Below the pieces are notes generated by a model, which made no database searches, was not told the origin of the DNA, and was given only the letters and a program-made list of their open reading frames with translations. Below, in pieces: positions 10,635 through 24,382 of a DNA stretch of 64,000 nucleotides. The stretch is from contig JADJPJ010000027.1 in the NCBI GenBank assembly GCA_016713325.1, positions 56,849 through 120,848 of the forward strand. Reading direction: 5' to 3'. Every line of letters begins with the position of its first letter. Positions within the stretch are counted from its first letter, which is position 1. Made by a program: the position numbers and the translations under genes. Source of the DNA: Candidatus Flexifilum affinis (GTDB lineage Bacteria > Chloroflexota > Anaerolineae > Aggregatilineales > Phototrophicaceae).

Positions 10635-13610
10635 ATGACCGATGTGTTCATTTCCTATTCTCGCAAAGATCAGGATTTCGTCCGCCAGCTCTTCGAGCGG
10701 CTGTCGGAAAAGGACCGCGCCGCATGGGTCGACTGGGAAGGTATCCCCGTCACCGCCGACTGGTGGCAGGAGATCGCCAAGGGGATCGACGCCGCCGACA
10801 ACTTCCTGTTCATCATCAGCCCGGACTCGGTGATGTCGCAGGTGTGCAACCGCGAGATCGAGTACGCGGTCGCGCACAACAAGCGACTGATCCCAATCGT
10901 CCGCCGAGAGGCCGTGCCGGAGGAGATGAACAAGGCGCTGGCACGTCACAACTGGCTCTATGCGCGCGAAGGCGACGACTTCGACGAAGTCTTCGACGCG
11001 CTCATCGACGCGCTCAACACCGACCTGGTTTACGTTCAGGGCCACACCCGGCTGCTGGTCCGCGCCCGCGAGTGGGAGAAAGAGAGGGAGGACGCCAGCT
11101 ATCTGCTGCGCGGCAGCGAGCTGAGCCTGGCGGAGACCTGGCTGGAAGAGAGCGGCGGCAAGGAGCCCAAGCCGACCGAACTGCAAACCCGCTATCTCCA
11201 TGCCAGCCGCCGGGTCAGCAACGCGCGCCAGCGGACGCTGCTGGCCGGCGTTTCGGTGGCGCTGGCGGCAACCGTGGCCCTGGCCCTGATCGCCGTCGCC
11301 CTTTTCGGCGTGGCCGAAAACCGTCGGCAGGAAAGCGAGCAGCGGGGCACAGCCGTGGCGCAGCAGGCTGCGACGGCCACCAATGCCCTCGGACTGAGCG
11401 AAGTGCGCGGCACCGAGGTCGCCTTCAGCGCGGCGACGGCCATCGCTGCCGAAGCAACCTCAGCCCGGCGGGCGGTCGAGTGGCAGGGGCTGGCCTGGGC
11501 CGTCGCCTCCGAGCGCGCCGGAGCCGCAGAAGATCACGATCTGGAACTGGCGCTGGCGCTTCAGGCGATGTCGATTGCGGAACCGCCGCCGGAAGTGCAG
11601 GCGCAGATGTTCGACGCCGCCTATGCGCCGGGTGCCGCGCGCGTTTTCGCCGGGGAGCACGCGGGCTGGGTCACTTCGCTCGACGTCAGCGCCGACGGCC
11701 GCTATCTGCTGTCCAGCGGCATGGAAGGGACGCTCGCCCTGTGGGATACGGCCACTGGCGAACTCCTGCACAGCGAGCAGTTCGGCAGCGGGGCAGACCT
11801 GGGCGCCGGCGCGTTCATGAACTTGCAGGCCATCAACGCGGTTGCTTTTCACCCCACCCGCAGCAATATCGCCGTCACCGGGACCAGCAACGGCACGCTC
11901 ACCCTATGGGATGTCGCGGAGTGGCAGCCGCTGGCGCAGGTCTCGACCGATTTTGTCGAGGCCGTGGCTTTCAGCCCCGATGGTCGCCTGATCGCCGTCG
12001 GCATGGCGGCCTCCACTGGCAACCTCGGGCTGTTCGACGCCGAAACGTTGGAAGTCGTGACTATGCTGGACGAGCACAGCGAAGATGTCATCTCGCTGGC
12101 CTTCTCCCCCGACGGCGCACTGCTGCTGGCGGGCTCCGAAGATGCCACCGCCAGCCTGTGGGAGATCTCCTCGCGCGAGCGGCTCATCACCTACGGGCCG
12201 GTGGTGGATGCGGTCGAGCCGGATATCGACATTGATGGGCTGGGTTTTGGCGCTCCCACTGAAAGCGGCGTCCCGACGATCATCCTGGCCACCAACAGCG
12301 GGCAGATCATCGCCTATGAGCGGGACAGCGGCGAAGAATTGCTGCGCTACGCGGTCGGTTTCACGCCGTCCACGCTGGACTCGCTGGCGGTCAATCCCTT
12401 TGGCTATCAGGTCGCGACCGCGGCTTATGATGGGTTGGTCTCCATCTGGGATTCGCGGACCGGTCGGCGGCTCCGCAGTTTCCGGGGCAGCACCGTCCGC
12501 CCGGCCAATAACGTGGTCTTCAGCCGCGATGGGCTGACGCTGTACGCCGGCTCACAGGACGGCACACTGCGCCGCTGGTATGTCCGCAGCGGGGCGGAAG
12601 CGGCGCGCTTCATCGGTTTCCGGAACGGCGCCGGCGCGGCGACGCTGGCCTTTGCTCCCGACGGCCTGCGCGCTCTGGTGGGCGGCGGCACAGCGGACCC
12701 GGCGCTGCTGGTCTGGGACCTGGAGACGGGTCAGGTGCTTCGCCGTTTGGAAGGACACCCCGACGCTGTCTTACATATTGAAACGATGGTCAACGACGCG
12801 GGCAATCTGCTCGCGCTGACCAGCGGATGGGATCCGGCGGTGCGCCTGTGGAACATCGACACCGGCGACGCCCTGCGCACCTATGACCTCGACGCGGTGC
12901 TCATTCCATCGCTCGACATCGCCACCGACAGCCGGCGCGCTCTGGTCGCGATCTATGGCGGTCGCAACAGTGGGTCCCACATTCTTGACCTGGAATCGGG
13001 CGAGCTGATCGAGGAGTTGGATACCGGTCTTTTCATCAATGTGGTTGTGATGTTCTCCCCCGACGAGTCGCGTATTTTCATCGGCGGCGCGGCGGAGTCC
13101 GCCAACGGGCGGGCGCTGCTGTTCGACGCGTCGACGCGTGAGGTACTGTCGACGTGGGATCTGGATGGGTCGTCGGTCAACGCCGCCGCCTTCAGCGCCG
13201 ATGGCACGCGGCTGCTGGTCGCCACCCAGGATGGGCAGATCTTCGAATATGCGATGCCCGATGGGACCGAAGTGCGCAGGTATGTTGGCCACAGCGACGT
13301 CGTCTCCAGCGTCACTTTCAGCCCGGACGAACGCTGGATGCTGAGCACCGGCTATGACGATACGGCACGGGTGTGGGATGCGCAGACCGGGCTGCTGCTC
13401 TTCACGCTGATGATGGACGACGACGGACGCGAGGTCCAGTTCGGGCCGGATGGTCTGCCTTATACCGTCAGCCGCGATGGCGGCCTGACTCGCTGGCTGC
13501 TCGCCCGCGACGCTTTCGGCGCGCGCGATTGGGCGCTGGCCAACCGCGTGGTGCGCGACTTCACCTGCGCCGAACGCCAGGCAAACCGCATCGCGCCGTT
13601 GTGCGAGTAG
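10635..13610 (+). CDS. TIR domain - transmembrane - WD40 propeller protein
   Basis: A 991-residue protein. Residues 1-135 are a TIR domain: [20 protein letters not shown] (box 1), [37 protein letters not shown]. The Glu after the CNRE helix sits where TIR NADases have their catalytic Glu. One membrane helix spans about residues 200-225. A coiled or Ala-rich segment follows to about residue 335. The remainder is a long WD40 array (for example [57 protein letters not shown]), enough blades for about two propellers. TIR proteins with propellers are thought to signal or cleave NAD on sensing a trigger; the trigger here is unknown. Confidence 0.92.
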
Positions 13611-13667
13611 CTGAAATAGAAAGGAATGAGAGACGGGGGGATGGGGCCTGGAGCGGGGTCCGGAGCT

Positions 13668-15362
13668 GGTCACTGCCCCGTCGTTGGCCTGGGAGACCAG
13701 ACGGGCATACTTGGCCATCACGCCGCTGAGGTAGTGCGGCTTCGGCGCCTGCCACTCGCGGCGGCGTGCCGCCAGTTCCTCGTCGCTCAGCTCGACGTTG
13801 AGCGAACGCGCGTCAATGTCGACGTTGATGACGTCGCCCTCGCGCAGCAGCGCGATCGGCCCGCCGACCATCGCCTCCGGCGCGACATGGCCGATCATCA
13901 GGCCGCGCGTCGCCCCGCTGAAGCGCCCATCGGTCAGCAGCATCACATCCGAGCCGTGCCCCTGTCCGACGATCGCCGCCGTCACCTGGAGCATCTCGCG
14001 CATGCCCGGCCCGCCTGTCGGCCCCTCGTAGCGGATCACCACGATGTCGCCGGGGTTGATCTGATGCGCCTGCACGGCATGGTAGGCATCTTCCTCGCGT
14101 TCGAAGACGCGGGCGACGCCGCGGAACTGACGCGGTTCGGTGCCCTTCAGCTTGACCACGCCGCCATCCGGGGCAAGGTTGCCCTTCATGATGTGCAGGC
14201 CGCCGTTTTCAAAGATCGGGTTGTCAAGCGGGCGGATGACCTGCTGGCCGGGCGTCTCAGTCGCGGTGGCCGCTTCTTCGGACAGGGTCGTGCCGCTGAC
14301 GGTGATCGCGCTGCCGTCGATATAGCCGCCCTCCAGCAGGCGCTGGGTCAGCAGACGCACGCCGCCTGCCTTGTAGAGATCCACGGCGTTGTATTTGCCC
14401 GTGGGCGTCATGTCGCACAGCAGCGGCGTGCGCTTGCTGATGGCCTCGATGTCATCGATGGTGAAGGGGATGCCGGCTTCACGGGCGAAGGCCAGCGTGT
14501 GCAGCACGCCGTTGGTGCTGCCACCGCTCGCGGCAATCGCTGCGACCGCGTTTTCCAGCGCCGTAAGGGTAACGATCTTGCTGGGCCGCAGGTCGGCTTC
14601 GATCATCTTGAGGATCAAGGCGCCAGCGTCGACTGAAGCGCGATCCTTGTCATCGTCCATCGCCGGGATGTCCGCCAGGCCCATCGGGCACAGGCCCAGG
14701 ACTTCGCCGACCATCGCCATGGTGTTGGCGGTGAACTGCCCGCCGCACGCGCCGGGTCCTGGACAGGCCGCGTCTTCGATACCCTTCAGTTCCTCCAGGC
14801 TGATCTTGCCGGCCTGGTAGGCGCCCATCGCCTCGAAGACCGAGCCAACCGTCAACTCACGCCCTTTGTAGTTGCCAGGCAGGATGGAGCCGCCGTAGAG
14901 CATGATCGACGGGATATCCATACGGATCATCGCCATGATCGTGCCGGGGATGGTCTTGTCACAGGCGGAGAGGGTGATCATGCCGTCAAAGTAGTTACCG
15001 CGCGCCACCAGTTCAATCGAGTCGGCGATGATCTCGCGGCTGATCAGCGAGGTCTTCATGCCCTCGGTGCCCATCGTGATGCCGTCGCTGATGCTGACGG
15101 TGTTGAACTCCAGCGGCGTGCCGCCCGCTCGTTTGATGCCCTCGCGCACCTTGGCGGAAAGGCGGCGTAGGTGGAAGTTGCAGGGTCCGATCTCCGTCCA
15201 GGTGTTGGCGATGCCGATGATCGGCTTGCTCAGATCCTCGTCGGTCAGGCCGATCGCTTTGAGCATGGAACGCGCGCCGGCGCGGTCAACACCGCCGACC
15301 AGGGTACGGCTGCGAGCATTAAGTTCATGCAGTCGGTCGCGGATTTCTGGTGAATCGGTCAT
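13668..15362 (-). CDS. ilvD: Dihydroxy-acid dehydratase IlvD (natural stop codon apparently lost)
   Basis: This Fe-S enzyme dehydrates dihydroxy-isovalerate and dihydroxy-methylvalerate in valine, leucine and isoleucine synthesis. Starting at the ATG at 15362, it shows the family landmarks [46 protein letters not shown] (cluster cysteines), [21 protein letters not shown] and [13 protein letters not shown]. About 565 residues bring it to the usual length, ending at DGAVT. The literal frame then has no stop until 12771, running about 840 bases antisense into the TIR gene. A one-base change in the GGGG run near 13677 would give an immediate TGA. I therefore end the gene at 13668; the exact end is uncertain. 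Confidence 0.9.
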
Positions 15363-16722: not shown

Positions 16723-16763
16723 CACACTTAGCGAGAGAAGACGTCCCCCTCGCTAAGTGTGTT
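16721..16763 (+). terminator. Perfect 15-bp hairpin after the kinase gene
   Basis: Arms 16721-16735 (AACACACTTAGCGAG) and 16749-16763 are exact complements with a 13-base loop. The left arm overlaps the kinase TAA stop. There is no U tract, but a TATACT word follows at once and could be the -10 box of the next gene. Confidence 0.7.
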
Positions 16764-16809
16764 ATACTCCGCGCGTTTGCCCGGACCAATTGCAGCGCCA
16801 GGATCAAAC

Positions 16810-18192
16810 GTGCTTTTCACAAGCGCTACCTTCGTCGTTTTCTTCGCCATAGTTCTCCTGCTGTGGCATTTGCTTCCGTTCCGGTTCGCCAAGTTCATGC
16901 TTCTCGTGGCGAGTCTTATCTTCTACGGCTATTGGTATCCGCCGTTGATGGTTCTGCTGCTGTTTTCGGGCCTGGTCGACTACATCGCCGGAGCACGCAT
17001 CGTCTCAGACCCTGCCCACAGGCGTTCCTGGCTTGCCGCGTCACTCGCAACTAATCTGGGCGTGCTCTTCTTCTTCAAGTACTCGGCATTTGCAGTCGAT
17101 AACCTCAATGCGGTCTTCGGGCTGGTGAACGTACCGCTTCATGTGGAATGGTCGATCATATTGCCTCTCGGCATCTCTTTTTATACTTTTCAGAGCATGA
17201 GCTACACCATCGACATCTATAAAGGCACCCTGAAACCGACAAAGTCCTTGGCTGATTTTTTCATGTATCTGGCGTTCTTTCCCCAACTCGTCGCCGGTCC
17301 CATTGTTCGTGCAGTTGACTTCCTCCCACAGGTCCTGAAACGCCATCCGGTGACGTATGCCGATGTCGAAGAAGGGGTCTATCGCATTACGCGCGGTTTC
17401 TTCCTCAAGATGGTGATTGCCAACAACATTGCGGGCAGTGTTGAGACCATCTTCGCTCATGATGTCTCACGCCTGGATCTGTGGGCGGCATGGATGGGCG
17501 CTCTCTTTTTCGGAATCCAGATATTCTGTGACTTTGCAGGCTATTCGGACATCGCCATTGGACTTGCGCGACTCTTCGGGTTTCGGCTTCTGGAGAACTT
17601 CAGTAGCCCTTATACGGCTGGCAGCCTGCAGGACTTCTGGCGGCGCTGGCATATCTCGCTCTCCACCTGGTTCCGCGACTATGTCTATGTCCCTCTAGGT
17701 GGCAATCGAACCGGCCAGTGGCGGGCTTCGGCAAACCTCTTTGTCGTGTTTGTGATCAGCGGCATCTGGCATGGCGCCAACTGGACATTCCTCCTGTGGG
17801 GCGCCATGCATGGTCTGGCGCTGCTTATGGAACGCAGGCTGAAAAACTTCTGGCGAAGCCGGCAACGACCCGCGATGCCAGCTGCGCTAGCGACGACGCT
17901 GGTTCTAATCTTTGTCGTGTTCGCCTGGGTCCCTTTTCGTGCGCCATCGATCGCCTACATTCCAGTACTGGCAGCAGATGATCTCAGGTTCGCTTCGTCC
18001 ACAGATTCACTGTTTCTGGACGGTTTACCCTGGTTGCTCTTGTACATTGGGACTCAGACGATCATGTTCCTTCGCGAAAGGAACCCGGGCCTTAGCCGCA
18101 TTTTGTCGCCTAAACTGGAAATGTGGGTCTTCTTTGCACTGATCGTTCTGATTCCCAGTGCAACCGCAGATTTCATCTACTTCGATTTCTAG
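16810..18192 (+). CDS. MBOAT-family membrane O-acyltransferase (AlgI-like)
   Basis: The start is placed at the GTG at 16810 (LFTSATFVVFFAIVLLLWHL), with AGGA 6 bases upstream; an earlier in-frame GTG lies inside the terminator hairpin. The 460 residues contain about 10-12 membrane helices. The DFWRRWHISLSTWFRDYVY segment is the MBOAT signature and IWHGANWTFLLWGAMHG holds the catalytic His. AlgI-type enzymes transfer acetyl groups across the membrane to a partner SGNH protein, which acetylates surface polysaccharide. The next gene is such a partner, so the two likely form one O-acetylation system. Confidence 0.92.
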   Translation: MLFTSATFVVFFAIVLLLWHLLPFRFAKFMLLVASLIFYGYWYPPLMVLLLFSGLVDYIAGARIVSDPAHRRSWLAASLATNLGVLFFFKYSAFAVDNLNAVFGLVNVPLHVEWSIILPLGISFYTFQSMSYTIDIYKGTLKPTKSLADFFMYLAFFPQLVAGPIVRAVDFLPQVLKRHPVTYADVEEGVYRITRGFFLKMVIANNIAGSVETIFAHDVSRLDLWAAWMGALFFGIQIFCDFAGYSDIAIGLARLFGFRLLENFSSPYTAGSLQDFWRRWHISLSTWFRDYVYVPLGGNRTGQWRASANLFVVFVISGIWHGANWTFLLWGAMHGLALLMERRLKNFWRSRQRPAMPAALATTLVLIFVVFAWVPFRAPSIAYIPVLAADDLRFASSTDSLFLDGLPWLLLYIGTQTIMFLRERNPGLSRILSPKLEMWVFFALIVLIPSATADFIYFDF

Positions 18193-18229
18193 AGATCAGC
18201 AGCGCGTGGAACACAATGGAAAAACCAAT

Positions 18230-19281
18230 ATGCTTCGCTACGTGCGCCTTTTCCTCCCCTTCATTGTTATCCTGTTGGTCGCCGGCCAGCTGTCGCCACT
18301 CATCGCGCGGATTTGCAGCGCTCAGGCAATCCCCTGGAACGAGGCGCTGGAAGGTGCGCGCATCCTCGGGAATTTCCGCCATTTGCTCGACCCCGAGACC
18401 CTGATGGCAGGCGACGTCTTCCTGATGGGCACATCGCGAACCACATCGGCGTTCGCGCCGCCGGTGCTGGAAGCAGCGCTGGCGCAGGCCTTTCCTGAAG
18501 AAGGTTCCTGGAACGTGGTCAATCTGCAGACCTATGGACGCTATGCTCAACGGGCGGAGGACGTGCTGGAAAGGATCAATCCCGATGCCCGGTTGATCGT
18601 CTTTGAATTCAGCCCTTTTCTCTTCACCATGAATCGGAAGCGCTTGTCGAGCCCTCCGATTTCACGCGATACCGGCGAGCCATCGAAGTCGAGGAACTAC
18701 GCCTCCAGGGTGCGCTGGATTCGATGCTCGGTATGGAGAATCGCGTTTTTTTGGACCCGGCCTACCTCTATAGCTATGTGCTACCGCAGCTTCGAAATCT
18801 GGAGAGCTGCCAGGGCCTGTACTATGTACTGCGCCTGAAAGGACCGGGAGAGAGCGCAGCCCAGGCCATGCGCAATGAAATCCCAGTCTACCTGTCAATC
18901 CTTCCTGACGAAGCTGCGCTGGCCGCACTGCAAGACGTCATGGGCGACAGCACCGTGCCACTGGAAACCTCCTCAGAACCGGAGTTCAACGAGGAGGCAT
19001 GGAACGCTTTCGAGCGGATTGTCCAGCTCTATTCCGCAACACAGCGTCTCGTCGTCATTCGCCCGCCGGTTTCCGCAGAGACATACGAAAACGAAGCGGC
19101 GATCTTCGCCGATGTCATTGCTCGGACCGAAGCCCTGCTGGAACGGCATGATGTTCCGCTCATCGATATGAACCCCAACCCATACGAAAGCATGGATGGG
19201 TCGCACCTGGTCTGGTTCGACTCGGTTCCCGCGACAGAGCAGCTTGCTCAGCAGATCATTGGCGCCTGGCAGCCACGCTGA
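18230..19281 (+). CDS. AlgX/AlgJ/DltD-like SGNH-fold partner of the MBOAT (one frameshift)
   Basis: The ATG at 18230 begins a membrane anchor (LRYVRLFLPFIVILLVAGQL). A block I motif FLMGTSRTTSAF carries the nucleophile Ser. At about 18630 one base is missing: the first frame reads FEFSPFLFTM and the second resumes ESEALVEPSDFTRYRRA through to 19281. The C-terminus has MDGSHLVW, the Asp-x-x-His of the SGNH triad. Reconstructed length is about 350 residues. It starts 37 bases after the MBOAT stop, so it is probably cotranscribed and receives acyl groups outside the membrane. It is either a real pseudogene or a sequencing error. Confidence 0.78.
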
Positions 19282-19302: not shown

Positions 19303-19917
19303 TTATGAGGCCGGCCCCTCGGTTTCCGCCTGCACGCGTTCGACCACCTGGCGCAGAACGTCCACCGGCTGCGCCCCGGCGACCAGATAGCGCCCCGCGA
19401 ACACCAACGCCGGCACCCCGCTCAGCCCGAGCTGCCGGGCAAGCGCGACATCCTCGCTGACCAGGGCATCGTACTGCGGATCGTCCAGCAGCGTGAGAAA
19501 GCGCTCACCGTCCATACCGCTGGCCTCGGCGAGCGTCCGCAGCACCGTCGGGTCGGAGATGTCCTTCGCCTCATCCCAGTAGGCGCGCGTCACCAGGTCG
19601 TGGAAAGCCTCGCCAAAGCCATAGGCATCCGCAATTTTCTCGCCGACCAGCGCATCGCGGCTGCTGATGCCGAACGGCCCCGAGTGCACTTCGATGCCGT
19701 GCTGTTCGCGCATGATCTGGTTGAAGCGTGGCCGCCCCACCGTTTCGATGTACTGCCGGTAATCGTCCGGGATCGGGGGCGCCCCCGCCGGACGGAGTTC
19801 AAACGACCGCCAGCGCAGGGTCAGGTCGTGTGTTTCCTTGAGCGCCTTCAAACTGAGGGCGACGGCGTAGCACCACGGTCAGACGAAGTCCGACCATACA
19901 TCGACGTGTACGGGCAT
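19303..19917 (-). CDS. FrnE/DsbA-like dithiol oxidoreductase with UGA at the first active-site cysteine (candidate selenoprotein)
   Basis: From the ATG at 19917 (AGGAG 7 bases upstream) the frame reads MPVHVDVWSDFV, then TGA (19881-19879), then PWCYAVALSLKALKE, and on without interruption to 19303. Family members have SDFVCPWCY, so the TGA replaces the first Cys of CPWC. The rest is a full FrnE-like domain (about 204 residues), with LRWRSFELRPAG, an inserted helical part and the cis-Pro loop LSGVPALVF. A small hairpin suited to a bacterial SECIS lies 17 bases after the UGA. Either UGA is read as selenocysteine or one base of a TGC codon is wrong. Selenocysteine machinery is not in this window. 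Confidence 0.8.
19843..19861 (-). promoter_or_regulatory. SECIS-like hairpin downstream of the in-frame UGA
   Basis: On the minus strand, CGCC pairs with GGCG, then a C-A mismatch, then UC pairs with GA, closing a 5-base loop AGUUU (19854-19850). Bacterial SECIS elements sit roughly 16-37 bases past the UGA and have a G among the first two loop bases. Here that G is the second loop base, 25 bases past the UGA. The stem is short, so the fit is suggestive only. Confidence 0.45.
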
Positions 19918-20280
19918 GATGTCTCCTGGCTTGATAGCTCTACTGTGGAGGATCAGGGAAGCGTCGGTGAACTTCCACGGACATATTCTAGCGGGGTCAG
20001 GCCCATCGCGCGAAGCGCTACGGGCTTTGTAACCCAGGCTTCCGGCTTCCGTCGCTTCCCGGACACGCTGCCAGAGCGCATCGACCTGATCGATCGTCGT
20101 CGTGATGGAAAAGTGGCCTGCGCGGGGAGTAGGCGGAGGGCCGGCCGTGCGACGGGCCGTTTCGATCCAGTAGACGGCGCTGACCTGGGATGGCATAACC
20201 TCAGCGTCATGCTGCATGCGGGCCTGCTGCACCCGGGCGATCAGGTCGAGATCGGGCATGCCCTGCGAATCGTCGCTCAT
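19879..20280 (-). CDS. Small conserved-looking protein, possibly DUF1917-like, upstream of the FrnE-like gene
   Basis: The ATG at 20280 overlaps the histidine kinase TGA (ATGA), indicating translational coupling. The segment SAVYWIETARR, then IDQVDALWQRVREATEAG and LGYKARSAS, recalls the Trp/Gly pattern of Bles03/DUF1917 proteins, but the C-terminal half of that domain is absent. The frame has no stop before the FrnE-like gene: it runs into the latter's own frame and ends only at its UGA. So it is either truncated by a lost stop, or part of a fusion if that UGA is decoded. Function unknown. Confidence 0.5.
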   Translation of the reverse strand: MSDDSQGMPDLDLIARVQQARMQHDAEVMPSQVSAVYWIETARRTAGPPPTPRAGHFSITTTIDQVDALWQRVREATEAGSLGYKARSASRDGPDPARICPWKFTDASLILHSRAIKPGDIMPVHVDVWSDFV

Positions 20281-23207: not shown

Positions 23208-24382
23208 ATGACCCTTGCCCCGATTCGGGAAACCTTCCTGCCCTTCGCCCTACCCGATATCGATCAGCGCGAGATCGACGCCGTGACCGAAGTGGTCGCG
23301 TCCGGCTGGCTGACCACCGGCCCGAAGACGGTTGAATTCGAGAAGCAGTTCGCCGCTTACCTGGGTGTCAAGCATGCCGTCGCCGTCAATTCAGCCACCG
23401 CTGCCATGCACCTGGCGTTGGAGGCGATCGGCCTGCAGCGCGGCGACGAGGTGATCACGTCCACCTTCACCTTCGCCGCCACGGCCGAGGTGGTGCGCTA
23501 TTTTGACGCCAAGCCGGTCTTCGTCGACGTTCAGCGCGACACCCTGAATATCGATCCATCGCTGATCGAAGCGGCCATCACCGAGCGAACCAAGGCCATC
23601 ATCCCGGTGCACGTGGCCGGCCAGTCCGCCGATCTGGATGCCATCCACGCCATCGCACGCAATCATGACCTGCGCGTTATCGACGATGCCGCCCACGCCC
23701 TGCCGACCCACTACAAGGGCCGCCTGATCGGCGCAATCAGCGACATGACCTCGTTCAGCTTCTACGCCCTAAGACGCTGGCCACCGGCGAAGGCGGCATG
23801 ATCACCACCGATAACGACGAATGGGCCGACCGCTGCCGCGTCATGCGCCTGCATGGCATGAGCAAGGACGCCTGGAAGCGTTACACCGGCGAAGGAAGCT
23901 GGCGCTACGACATCGTCGCGCCCGGGTTCAAGTACAACCTGACCGACATCGCCTCAGCCATGGGTCTGGTGCAGTTGAGCAAAATACAAGCCATGTTCAC
24001 GCGCCGTGTGGAGATTGCCCGTGCTTTTGACGCCGCCTTCGCCGGCCATCCGGCGCTGATCACGCCGCCGCTCTATGCCGACAGCACCCATCCCTATCAT
24101 CTGTACATCCTGCGCCTGAACCTGGATGCCCTGACCGTCAACCGCTCGCAGTTCATGGAGCACCTGCGCCAGGCGAACATCGGGGCGAGCGTGCACTGGA
24201 TTCCGCTGCACATGCATCCCTACTACGTGCAGACCTACGGCTACACTCCGGAAGATTTCCCGATCGCCGCCGAAGAAGGCATGCGCTGCATTTCGCTGCC
24301 GATCTACTCGCGGATGACCAACAGCGACGTTGAAGATGTCATTACGGCCGTGCGCGATATCGCCGACCGTCATCTGGCCTGA
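23208..24382 (+). CDS. DegT/DnrJ/EryC1 sugar aminotransferase (one frameshift at the PLP lysine)
   Basis: The ATG at 23208 follows AAGGAGAA. The N-terminal frame reads WLTTGPKTVEFEKQFAAYLG and DDAAHALPTHYKGRLIG. At about 23771 one base is missing: the text GCCCTAAGACG should give Ala-Thr-Lys-Thr. The frame then resumes LATGEGGMITTDNDEWADR through to 24382. The break falls exactly at the lysine that binds PLP. Reconstructed length is about 391 residues, normal for the family. It would aminate a keto-sugar nucleotide made by the neighbouring epimerase. It is 15 bases upstream of the sugar-phosphate transferase gene. Confidence 0.88.

What the first reader, a model, noticed from the sequence alone, without database searches (positions are those of the whole stretch)
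19303..19917. In-frame UGA exactly at the first active-site Cys of a FrnE/DsbA-like protein: candidate selenoprotein
The frame is intact on both sides of a single TGA, which replaces the first Cys in the family's CPWC motif (giving U-P-W-C). Sec replacing a redox Cys is the usual pattern in thioredoxin-fold selenoproteins. A hairpin at 19843-19861 has a 5-base loop with G in position 2, 25 bases past the UGA, as bacterial SECIS elements require. Other broken genes in the window have indels, not stop substitutions at a catalytic codon. I do not know whether this subfamily has been recorded as a selenoprotein.
Basis: partly seen in the sequence, partly recalled or inferred. Interest (0 to 1): 0.85.

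Follow-up and report, generated by a model that had tools for sequence, protein, structure and literature searches.

The report
A selenium-containing FrnE redox protein
A bacterial redox enzyme of the FrnE/DsbA type almost certainly reads an internal stop codon as the rare selenium amino acid selenocysteine, a real but already known kind of selenoprotein that gene annotation often cuts short.

Summary
A frnE/DsbA-like gene on the minus strand (19917-19303) has one in-frame TGA (19881-19879) at the first active-site Cys of its CPWC motif. Two orthologues in Anaerolineae MAGs (77% identity, similar gene order) have TGA at the same codon. Of 92 loci read at that codon, window included, 71 have TGA, 21 TGC/TGT, none anything else. 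A hairpin with its loop 24 nt past the UGA fits the published bacterial SECIS model. In the window's subfamily its RGUYU loop is in 53 of 53 TGA genes and 0 of 8 Cys genes, with compensatory stem changes. SelB and SelD over cut-off: 8 of 8 genomes with TGA, 1 of 8 with Cys. The window's own genome is not held, so its own sel genes are unseen. The kind is known: 'DsbA-like, COG2761, UXXC' selenoproteins were reported in 2005 (PMC1088965). What is added: in the class sampled, 47 of 49 genomes with a full-length subfamily gene have TGA, Sec and Cys swap repeatedly, and database copies often lack the active site. New member of a known kind.

The parts
19303..19917 (-). frnE (DsbA family, FrnE-like) gene, 204 residues with Sec at residue 13; stop TAA at 19305-19303
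   Evidence: translation with TGA=U; Pfam PF01323 E 6e-30; FrnE structures 5cnw/5cp1 E 6e-21; orthologues L001/L002 77% over residues 1-198
19879..19881 (-). in-frame TGA read as selenocysteine, first position of the U-P-W-C active site
   Evidence: same TGA in L001 and L002; 71 TGA, 21 TGC or TGT, 0 other in 92 loci including the window
19870..19872 (-). TGC, second active-site Cys (residue 16)
   Evidence: TGC or TGT at this column in all 92 loci
19843..19861 (-). bacterial SECIS hairpin, stem CGCCCUC/GAAGGCG with one C.A mismatch; its loop begins 24 nt after the UGA
   Evidence: inner three pairs all formed in 49 of 53 TGA genes (the window is one of the four that fail) against 1 of 8 Cys genes; best register by slide control
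19850..19854 (-). SECIS apical loop AGUUU (RGUYU in the subfamily)
   Evidence: RGUYU in 53 of 53 TGA genes, 0 of 8 Cys genes
19915..19927 (-). AGGAGA ribosome-binding-like site, 4-nt spacer and ATG start
   Evidence: read from sequence
19303..19851 (-). shortened 182-aa ORF (internal TTG start) that automatic calling gives instead of the full protein; lacks the active site
   Evidence: ORF list; database protein P0002

Best explanation
The gene encodes a FrnE/DsbA-family thiol-disulfide oxidoreductase whose attacking residue is selenocysteine. During translation a SECIS hairpin just downstream of the UGA recruits SelB with Sec-tRNA(UCA), so UGA at residue 13 is read as Sec; Cys16 acts as the resolving residue. 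Shown here: the codon, its conservation, U/C alternation, the SECIS with covariation, and Sec machinery in the genomes of the orthologues. Inferred: that the window's own cell has the machinery and inserts Sec, that the protein is cytoplasmic, and that it works as a reductase or isomerase in oxidative-stress defence, as reported for Deinococcus FrnE. It lacks the C-terminal CXXXXC pair of that enzyme (its only Cys/Sec residues are 13 and 16), so it probably depends on an external reductant such as thioredoxin.
For: Same TGA in two orthologues with similar gene order. Position 13 is TGA or Cys only in 92 loci. SECIS loop 53 of 53 TGA genes against 0 of 8 Cys genes; stem pairs vary as C-G, G-C and U-A. 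For 49 TGA rows the inner three pairs form in 0.97 of cells in register and at most 0.64 when slid by 1 to 6; over seven pairs 0 of 2000 shuffles reach the observed 0.78. The bSECIS model in PMC13188914 (loop 3-9 nt, G in its first two positions, spacing 16-37 nt, MFE at or below -7.5) is met: 5 nt, position 2, 24 nt, -8.2 for a 39-nt stretch. tRNA-Sec with anticodon TCA in G001 and G002. SelB and SelD over cut-off in 8 of 8 TGA genomes and 1 of 8 Cys genomes. SelD is over cut-off in all 14 TGA genomes asked and carries an in-frame TGA in 12 of them, an independent sign of Sec decoding. UGA is otherwise an ordinary stop here: 29 of 50 heuristically chosen ORFs end in it.
Against: The window's own genome is not held; its 64 kb has no tRNA and no match to the ORFs of the SelA, SelB and SelD loci compared, so the machinery is inferred from relatives. 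The window hairpin has one stem mismatch and no unusual folding energy (z 0.27), and a Cys relative (L004) folds more stably than its shuffles (z -2.83). No Rfam match. tRNA-Sec is common in the class anyway (310 of 396), so its presence in 43 of 47 surveyed TGA genomes is only mildly informative; the 4 without a hit (G374, G090, G398, G334) do have SelD. G432 (TGA) has only a 47.5-bit tRNA-Sec match. SelA is not over the cut-off in 3 of the 8 TGA genomes asked, G001 among them. SelD of G334 and G090 shows no TGA. One Cys genome, G176, has tRNA-Sec, SelB and SelD. There is no protein evidence.
Confidence: 0.96

Rival explanations
1. Pseudogene: a nonsense mutation has killed frnE, and only the 3' part or nothing is made.
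For: The ordinary code gives a stop at residue 13; automatic annotation keeps only a 182-aa piece. At least one other gene in the window changes frame.
Against: The same TGA is found in relatives down to below 30% identity, with the frame continuing on both sides; neither TAA nor TAG occurs at the codon in 92 loci. The SECIS is conserved with compensatory changes.
Confidence: 0.01
2. Sequencing or assembly error: the true codon is TGC or TGT.
For: The window shows an indel-type break in another gene; reads cannot be rechecked; the nearest Cys homologues are 65-70% identical.
Against: L001 and L002, from separately deposited MAGs, have the same TGA. The window keeps the SECIS loop that all 53 TGA genes have and none of the 8 Cys genes has.
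Confidence: 0.015
3. UGA is read as another amino acid by a changed code or a suppressor, without selenium.
For: One database homologue, P0032, is printed with Trp at this column; I take this for a gene caller using code 4.
Against: UGA is the commonest stop among the window's chosen ORFs. The family alternates TGA with Cys, and the SECIS is conserved. Genomes of the two orthologues hold tRNA-Sec, SelB and a SelD with an in-frame TGA.
Confidence: 0.005
4. A programmed stop with a second start: an N-terminal stub and a short form from TTG 19851 are made on purpose.
For: The downstream ORF has a possible TTG start.
Against: The short form lacks the active site; it is more simply a gene-calling artefact, seen likewise in L002's product P0005.
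Confidence: 0.01

Closest known systems
DsbA-like selenoprotein family, COG2761 / PF01323, UXXC (Sargasso Sea 2005, PMC1088965; 'DsbA-like protein form 1' in PMC13188914)
   Same: Same Pfam domain, same UXXC active-site arrangement with Sec first, bacterial SECIS downstream (passages).
   Different: The passages I saw name no Chloroflexota member; this one groups with Anaerolineae MAGs. I did not compare sequences with the published members.
FrnE of Deinococcus radiodurans (DR_0659; PDB 5cnw, 5cp1, organism recalled)
   Same: FrnE-type DsbA protein with CPWC at the same column.
   Different: Cys instead of Sec, and a C-terminal CXXXXC pair that the window protein lacks.
Cys-containing FrnE relatives (for example L003, L100, P0003, P0004)
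   Same: Same subfamily, 53-70% identity.
   Different: Cys at residue 13. In the 8 Cys loci of the subfamily whose DNA was read: TGC or TGT, no RGUYU loop in any, and 7 of the 8 genomes lack SelB and SelD over the cut-off.
Rcas_1661 family thioredoxin-like (seleno)lipoprotein, NF041057 ('DsbG-like' in PMC13188914)
   Same: Thioredoxin-like UxxC selenoprotein family.
   Different: Only a weak C-terminal match, 30.9 bits against a cut-off of 190; not this family.

Membership tests
Bacterial selenoprotein gene | In-frame UGA aligned with Cys of non-seleno homologues | tested here: met
   71 TGA, 21 TGC/TGT, 0 other of 92 loci
Bacterial selenoprotein gene | bSECIS: 3-9 nt loop, 4-16 bp upper stem, G in first two loop positions, 16-37 nt from UGA, MFE at or below -7.5 | tested here: met
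   5-nt AGUUU, G second, 24 nt, seven stem positions of which one is a C.A mismatch, -8.2 kcal/mol for a 39-nt stretch; met if a single mismatch is allowed, which the passage does not say. Checked by hand, not with bSECISearch
Bacterial selenoprotein gene | SelA, SelB, SelD and tRNA-Sec in the same genome | tested here: inconclusive
   Own genome not held. In the two nearest orthologue genomes tRNA-Sec, SelB and SelD in both, SelA over cut-off in G002 only
Bacterial selenoprotein gene | Selenium shown in the protein | not testable with these tools
   needs mass spectrometry or 75Se labelling
DsbA-like COG2761 selenoprotein (UXXC) | DSBA domain PF01323 with U-x-x-C | tested here: met
   PF01323 104.8 bits over cut-off 25.6; U13-P-W-C16
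DsbA-like COG2761 selenoprotein (UXXC) | Assignment to COG2761 or sequence match to a published Sec member | not tested
   No COG search on hand; that COG2761 is the FrnE group is recalled
FrnE subfamily of DsbA | Full-length similarity to FrnE with CP(W/F)C site | tested here: met
   FrnE 5cnw E 6e-21, residues 3-199; 3gl5 SCO1869 E 1e-13
FrnE of the Deinococcus radiodurans type | C-terminal CXXXXC | tested here: not met
   Only residues 13 and 16 are Cys/Sec

The most novel reading that the evidence does not exclude
Sec-FrnE is an old selenoprotein subfamily of Anaerolineae-type Chloroflexota, largely unrecognised because gene callers drop its active site. It has been swapped between Sec and Cys many times, mostly in step with loss of the Sec machinery, so it offers a natural series for asking when selenium is worth keeping.
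Probability: 0.5. Interest if true: 0.5.

Novelty: new member of a known kind. Interest (0 to 1): 0.38.

Why it matters
It confirms a selenoprotein spotted in raw sequence and shows that its relatives are often stored without their active site: the alignments of 39 of the 120 listed homologues (of 328 found) start only after it. Surveys of FrnE/DsbA proteins in these bacteria that rely on database proteins will miss many Sec forms. The repeated U/C changes (12 by parsimony, at least 5 forced by branches of support 95 or more) make the family useful for studying Sec-Cys exchange.

Tried and rejected
A search of the window's own genome failed because none is held. Rfam and ARAGORN found no SECIS or tRNA in the window, nor Rfam in the hairpin stretch. 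Folding energy did not single out the hairpin (z 0.27), and the Cys locus L004 folded better than its shuffles (z -2.83), so energy was dropped as an argument and comparison used. tRNA-Sec across the class was too common (310 of 396) to be a strong test, so TGA and Cys genomes were contrasted. NCBIfam has no model of this family over its cut-off. A scan of the window for other in-frame TGA candidates gave three junctions: one an ordinary boundary between two genes, two on ORFs that lie antisense to other genes; none was followed. No structure was predicted.

Papers. Seen as found passages only: PMC1088965, PMC1794560, PMC2398784, PMC5029168, PMC9312934, PMC13188914, PMC8945050, PMC10715225, PMC4959059, PMC7117926, PMC5736913. 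PMC12013277 was searched for four terms without a hit and its abstract start seen in a listing. That I found no Chloroflexota Sec-FrnE in print rests on the searches and the look-ups. Most papers of subscription journals are not in the library, and no supplements were open. Against a claim of novelty: PMC1794560 already counts 3 selenoproteins in Chloroflexi without naming them in the passage, and PMC4959059 reports Sec formate dehydrogenases and Sec translation factors in Anaerolineales.

Full report
What is there. On the minus strand the frame 19917-19303 reads through one TGA (19881-19879) and ends at TAA. With TGA read as Sec it gives a 204-residue protein with U-P-W-C at residues 13-16. 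Pfam DSBA covers residues 5-191 (E 6e-30). The nearest solved structures by sequence are 'FrnE protein' 5cnw/5cp1 (E 6e-21), where residue 13 aligns with the first Cys of CPWC (that these are the Deinococcus enzyme is recalled). An AGGAGA site lies 4 nt before the ATG.

Conservation of the TGA. A scan of the genome collection for relatives confirmed 136 and kept the 80 best loci. The two closest, L001 and L002 (Anaerolineae MAGs, 77% identity), have TGA at the same codon; L003, L004 and L005 (47-53%) have TGC or TGT. L001 and L002 share much of the window's gene order around frnE: a kinase-like gene, a sensor-like gene at 20.6-21.9 kb, an epimerase-like gene, a DegT-like aminotransferase, a sugar-transferase-like gene and, in L002, ilvD. 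Of these names only ilvD, and MBOAT below, come from Pfam; the rest are my reading of the sequences. A search of 396 genomes of the class of G001 (the genome of L001) matched 264 at E 0.001. From its capped list I took the matches that span most of the query down to about E 4e-10 (loci), leaving out matches to the C-terminal part only, one cut by a contig end (G358) and one duplicate (G032). Of 95 loci tried, window and L001-L005 included, 92 have an alignment over residue 13 (L148, L186 and L189 do not): 71 TGA, 16 TGC, 5 TGT, nothing else. Codon 16 is TGC or TGT in all 92.

SECIS. I split the loci by rank: L001-L150 and the window (36% identity or more) as the window's subfamily, the rest as a second group. 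L152 (36.9%, TGA) fell into the second group by this rule although it has the AGUUU loop; it is not counted below. The subfamily has 49 TGA and 5 Cys loci, or 53 and 8 after 7 loci of the order survey were added. The stretch after the UGA was compared without gaps. RGUYU is in 53 of 53 TGA genes and 0 of 8 Cys genes; the three inner pairs all form in 49 of 53 against 1 of 8. The window is one of the four that fail, by a C.A mismatch. Pairs vary in step: C-G, G-C and U-A occur. For the 49 TGA rows the inner three pairs form in 0.97 of cells, and in at most 0.64 when the partner is slid by 1 to 6; over seven pairs it is 0.78 against a shuffle mean of 0.62, with 0 of 2000 shuffles reaching it. 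Related rows make such shuffles too easy to beat, so this is not a probability; the slide control keeps kinship. Outer pairs are loose: the third from the outside (window 19859-19845) forms in only 16 of 49. The published bSECIS model (PMC13188914, passage) is met, with the one mismatch noted.

Machinery. In G001 and G002 tRNA-Sec scores 73.5 bits with anticodon TCA. The order survey of 121 genomes gave 13 with a match at E 1e-30: 8 with TGA (G001, G002, G060, G371, G432, G451, G462, G474) and 5 with Cys (G003, G088, G452, G469, G481). To the Cys side I added G004, G005 and G176 from the other surveys. SelB and SelD are over the cut-off in 8 of 8 TGA genomes and 1 of 8 Cys genomes, the exception being G176; within the order survey alone, 8 of 8 and 0 of 5. 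One-sided Fisher for 8 of 8 against 1 of 8 is 0.0007, not corrected for kinship. SelD was asked of 14 TGA genomes in all: over the cut-off in 14, with an in-frame TGA in 12; G334 and G090 show none, G090's match being partial. tRNA-Sec of 66 bits or more is in 7 of the 8 TGA genomes (G432 has 47.5 bits) and 1 of the 8 Cys genomes, G176; G481's 47.1 bits lies just over the cut-off of 47 but, like second matches of 48-49 bits in G001 and G002, is probably another long-armed tRNA (inference). SelA was asked of 12 genomes: over the cut-off in G002, G090, G134, G225 and G334 (TGA), not in G001, G374 and G398 (TGA), nor in the 4 Cys genomes G003, G004, G005 and G088. In the class survey 43 of the 47 TGA genomes of the subfamily have tRNA-Sec, read by eye from the list, against 310 of 396 overall; the four without it have SelD.

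Evolution. A tree of 105 rows (54 U, 51 C; 45 of the 80 full-length Cys database proteins used; residue 13 masked; quick method) needs 12 changes between U and C, at least 5 forced by branches of support 95 or more. The window, L001 and L002 form a U group (support 91) beside the Cys proteins P0003 and P0007 (86); both supports are moderate. The choice of rows is biased, since database proteins that keep the active site are Cys forms. As all 53 TGA genes share one loop, an old Sec form with repeated changes to Cys seems likelier than many gains; this is inference.

Annotation. Of the 120 listed homologues (of 328 found), 80 have Cys at residue 13, one (P0032) Trp, and the alignments of 39 start at residue 19 or later. 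For P0002 (the window) and P0005 (L002) the cause is the TGA; for the others it is inferred. P0032 is probably a Sec gene called with code 4.

What it does. Deinococcus FrnE is described as a cytoplasmic disulfide reductase or isomerase whose mutant is sensitive to cadmium and diamide, with a C-terminal CXXXXC that helps regenerate the site (PMC8945050, passages). The window protein keeps the site but lacks that pair. The likeliest mechanism is attack by Sec13, resolution by Cys16 and re-reduction by an external thiol system; this is inferred.

What is known. DsbA-like selenoproteins of COG2761 with UXXC were reported in 2005 (PMC1088965, passages). A 2016 survey lists DsbA-like proteins with the figures 41 and 45 (PMC5029168, passage; column headings not seen, presumably organisms and genes). 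A 2026 review lists 'DsbA-like protein form 1', PF01323, UxxC (PMC13188914, passages). Sec use in Anaerolineales is also on record for formate dehydrogenase (PMC4959059, passage). The finding is therefore a firmly supported new member of a known kind.

Changes on checking. The confidence was lowered from 0.97 to 0.96 and the novel case from 0.55 to 0.5, because G334 and G090 show no SelD TGA, tRNA-Sec is unclear in G432, and Sec use in Anaerolineales was already in print.

Noticed in passing
window 23208-24379 (+), near 23771-23774: A DegT-like aminotransferase gene changes frame relative to the unbroken orthologues in L001 and L002; an indel-type break, unlike the frnE TGA.
   Followed up: partly
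window 16759-19281 (+): An MBOAT acyltransferase gene and a second ORF lie between the kinase-like gene and frnE; in L001 and L002 the kinase-like gene lies directly beside frnE, so this pair may be an insertion.
   Followed up: no
window 12771-15362 (-): The ilvD frame runs about 300 codons past the end of its Pfam domains, suggesting a lost stop or frame change at the 3' end.
   Followed up: no
window 19879-20280 (-): A 133-aa ORF upstream is in the same frame as frnE and ends at its TGA; I take it for a separate gene piece, not an N-terminal extension, since L001 and L002 also have an ATG at the same place.
   Followed up: no
L151-L190 (second group): 22 of 38 more distant DsbA/FrnE-like loci also have TGA at this codon; many of them carry a different hairpin after it (GGCCAGGGUGUGGUC-like), so a second Sec group seems to exist.
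   Followed up: partly
G001, G002, G060, G371, G432, G451, G462, G474, G176 and others: selD has an in-frame TGA in these genomes, so selenophosphate synthetase is probably itself a selenoprotein there.
   Followed up: partly
P0032: Database homologue with Trp in place of the active-site residue (DFVWPFC), probably a Sec gene called with code 4.
   Followed up: no
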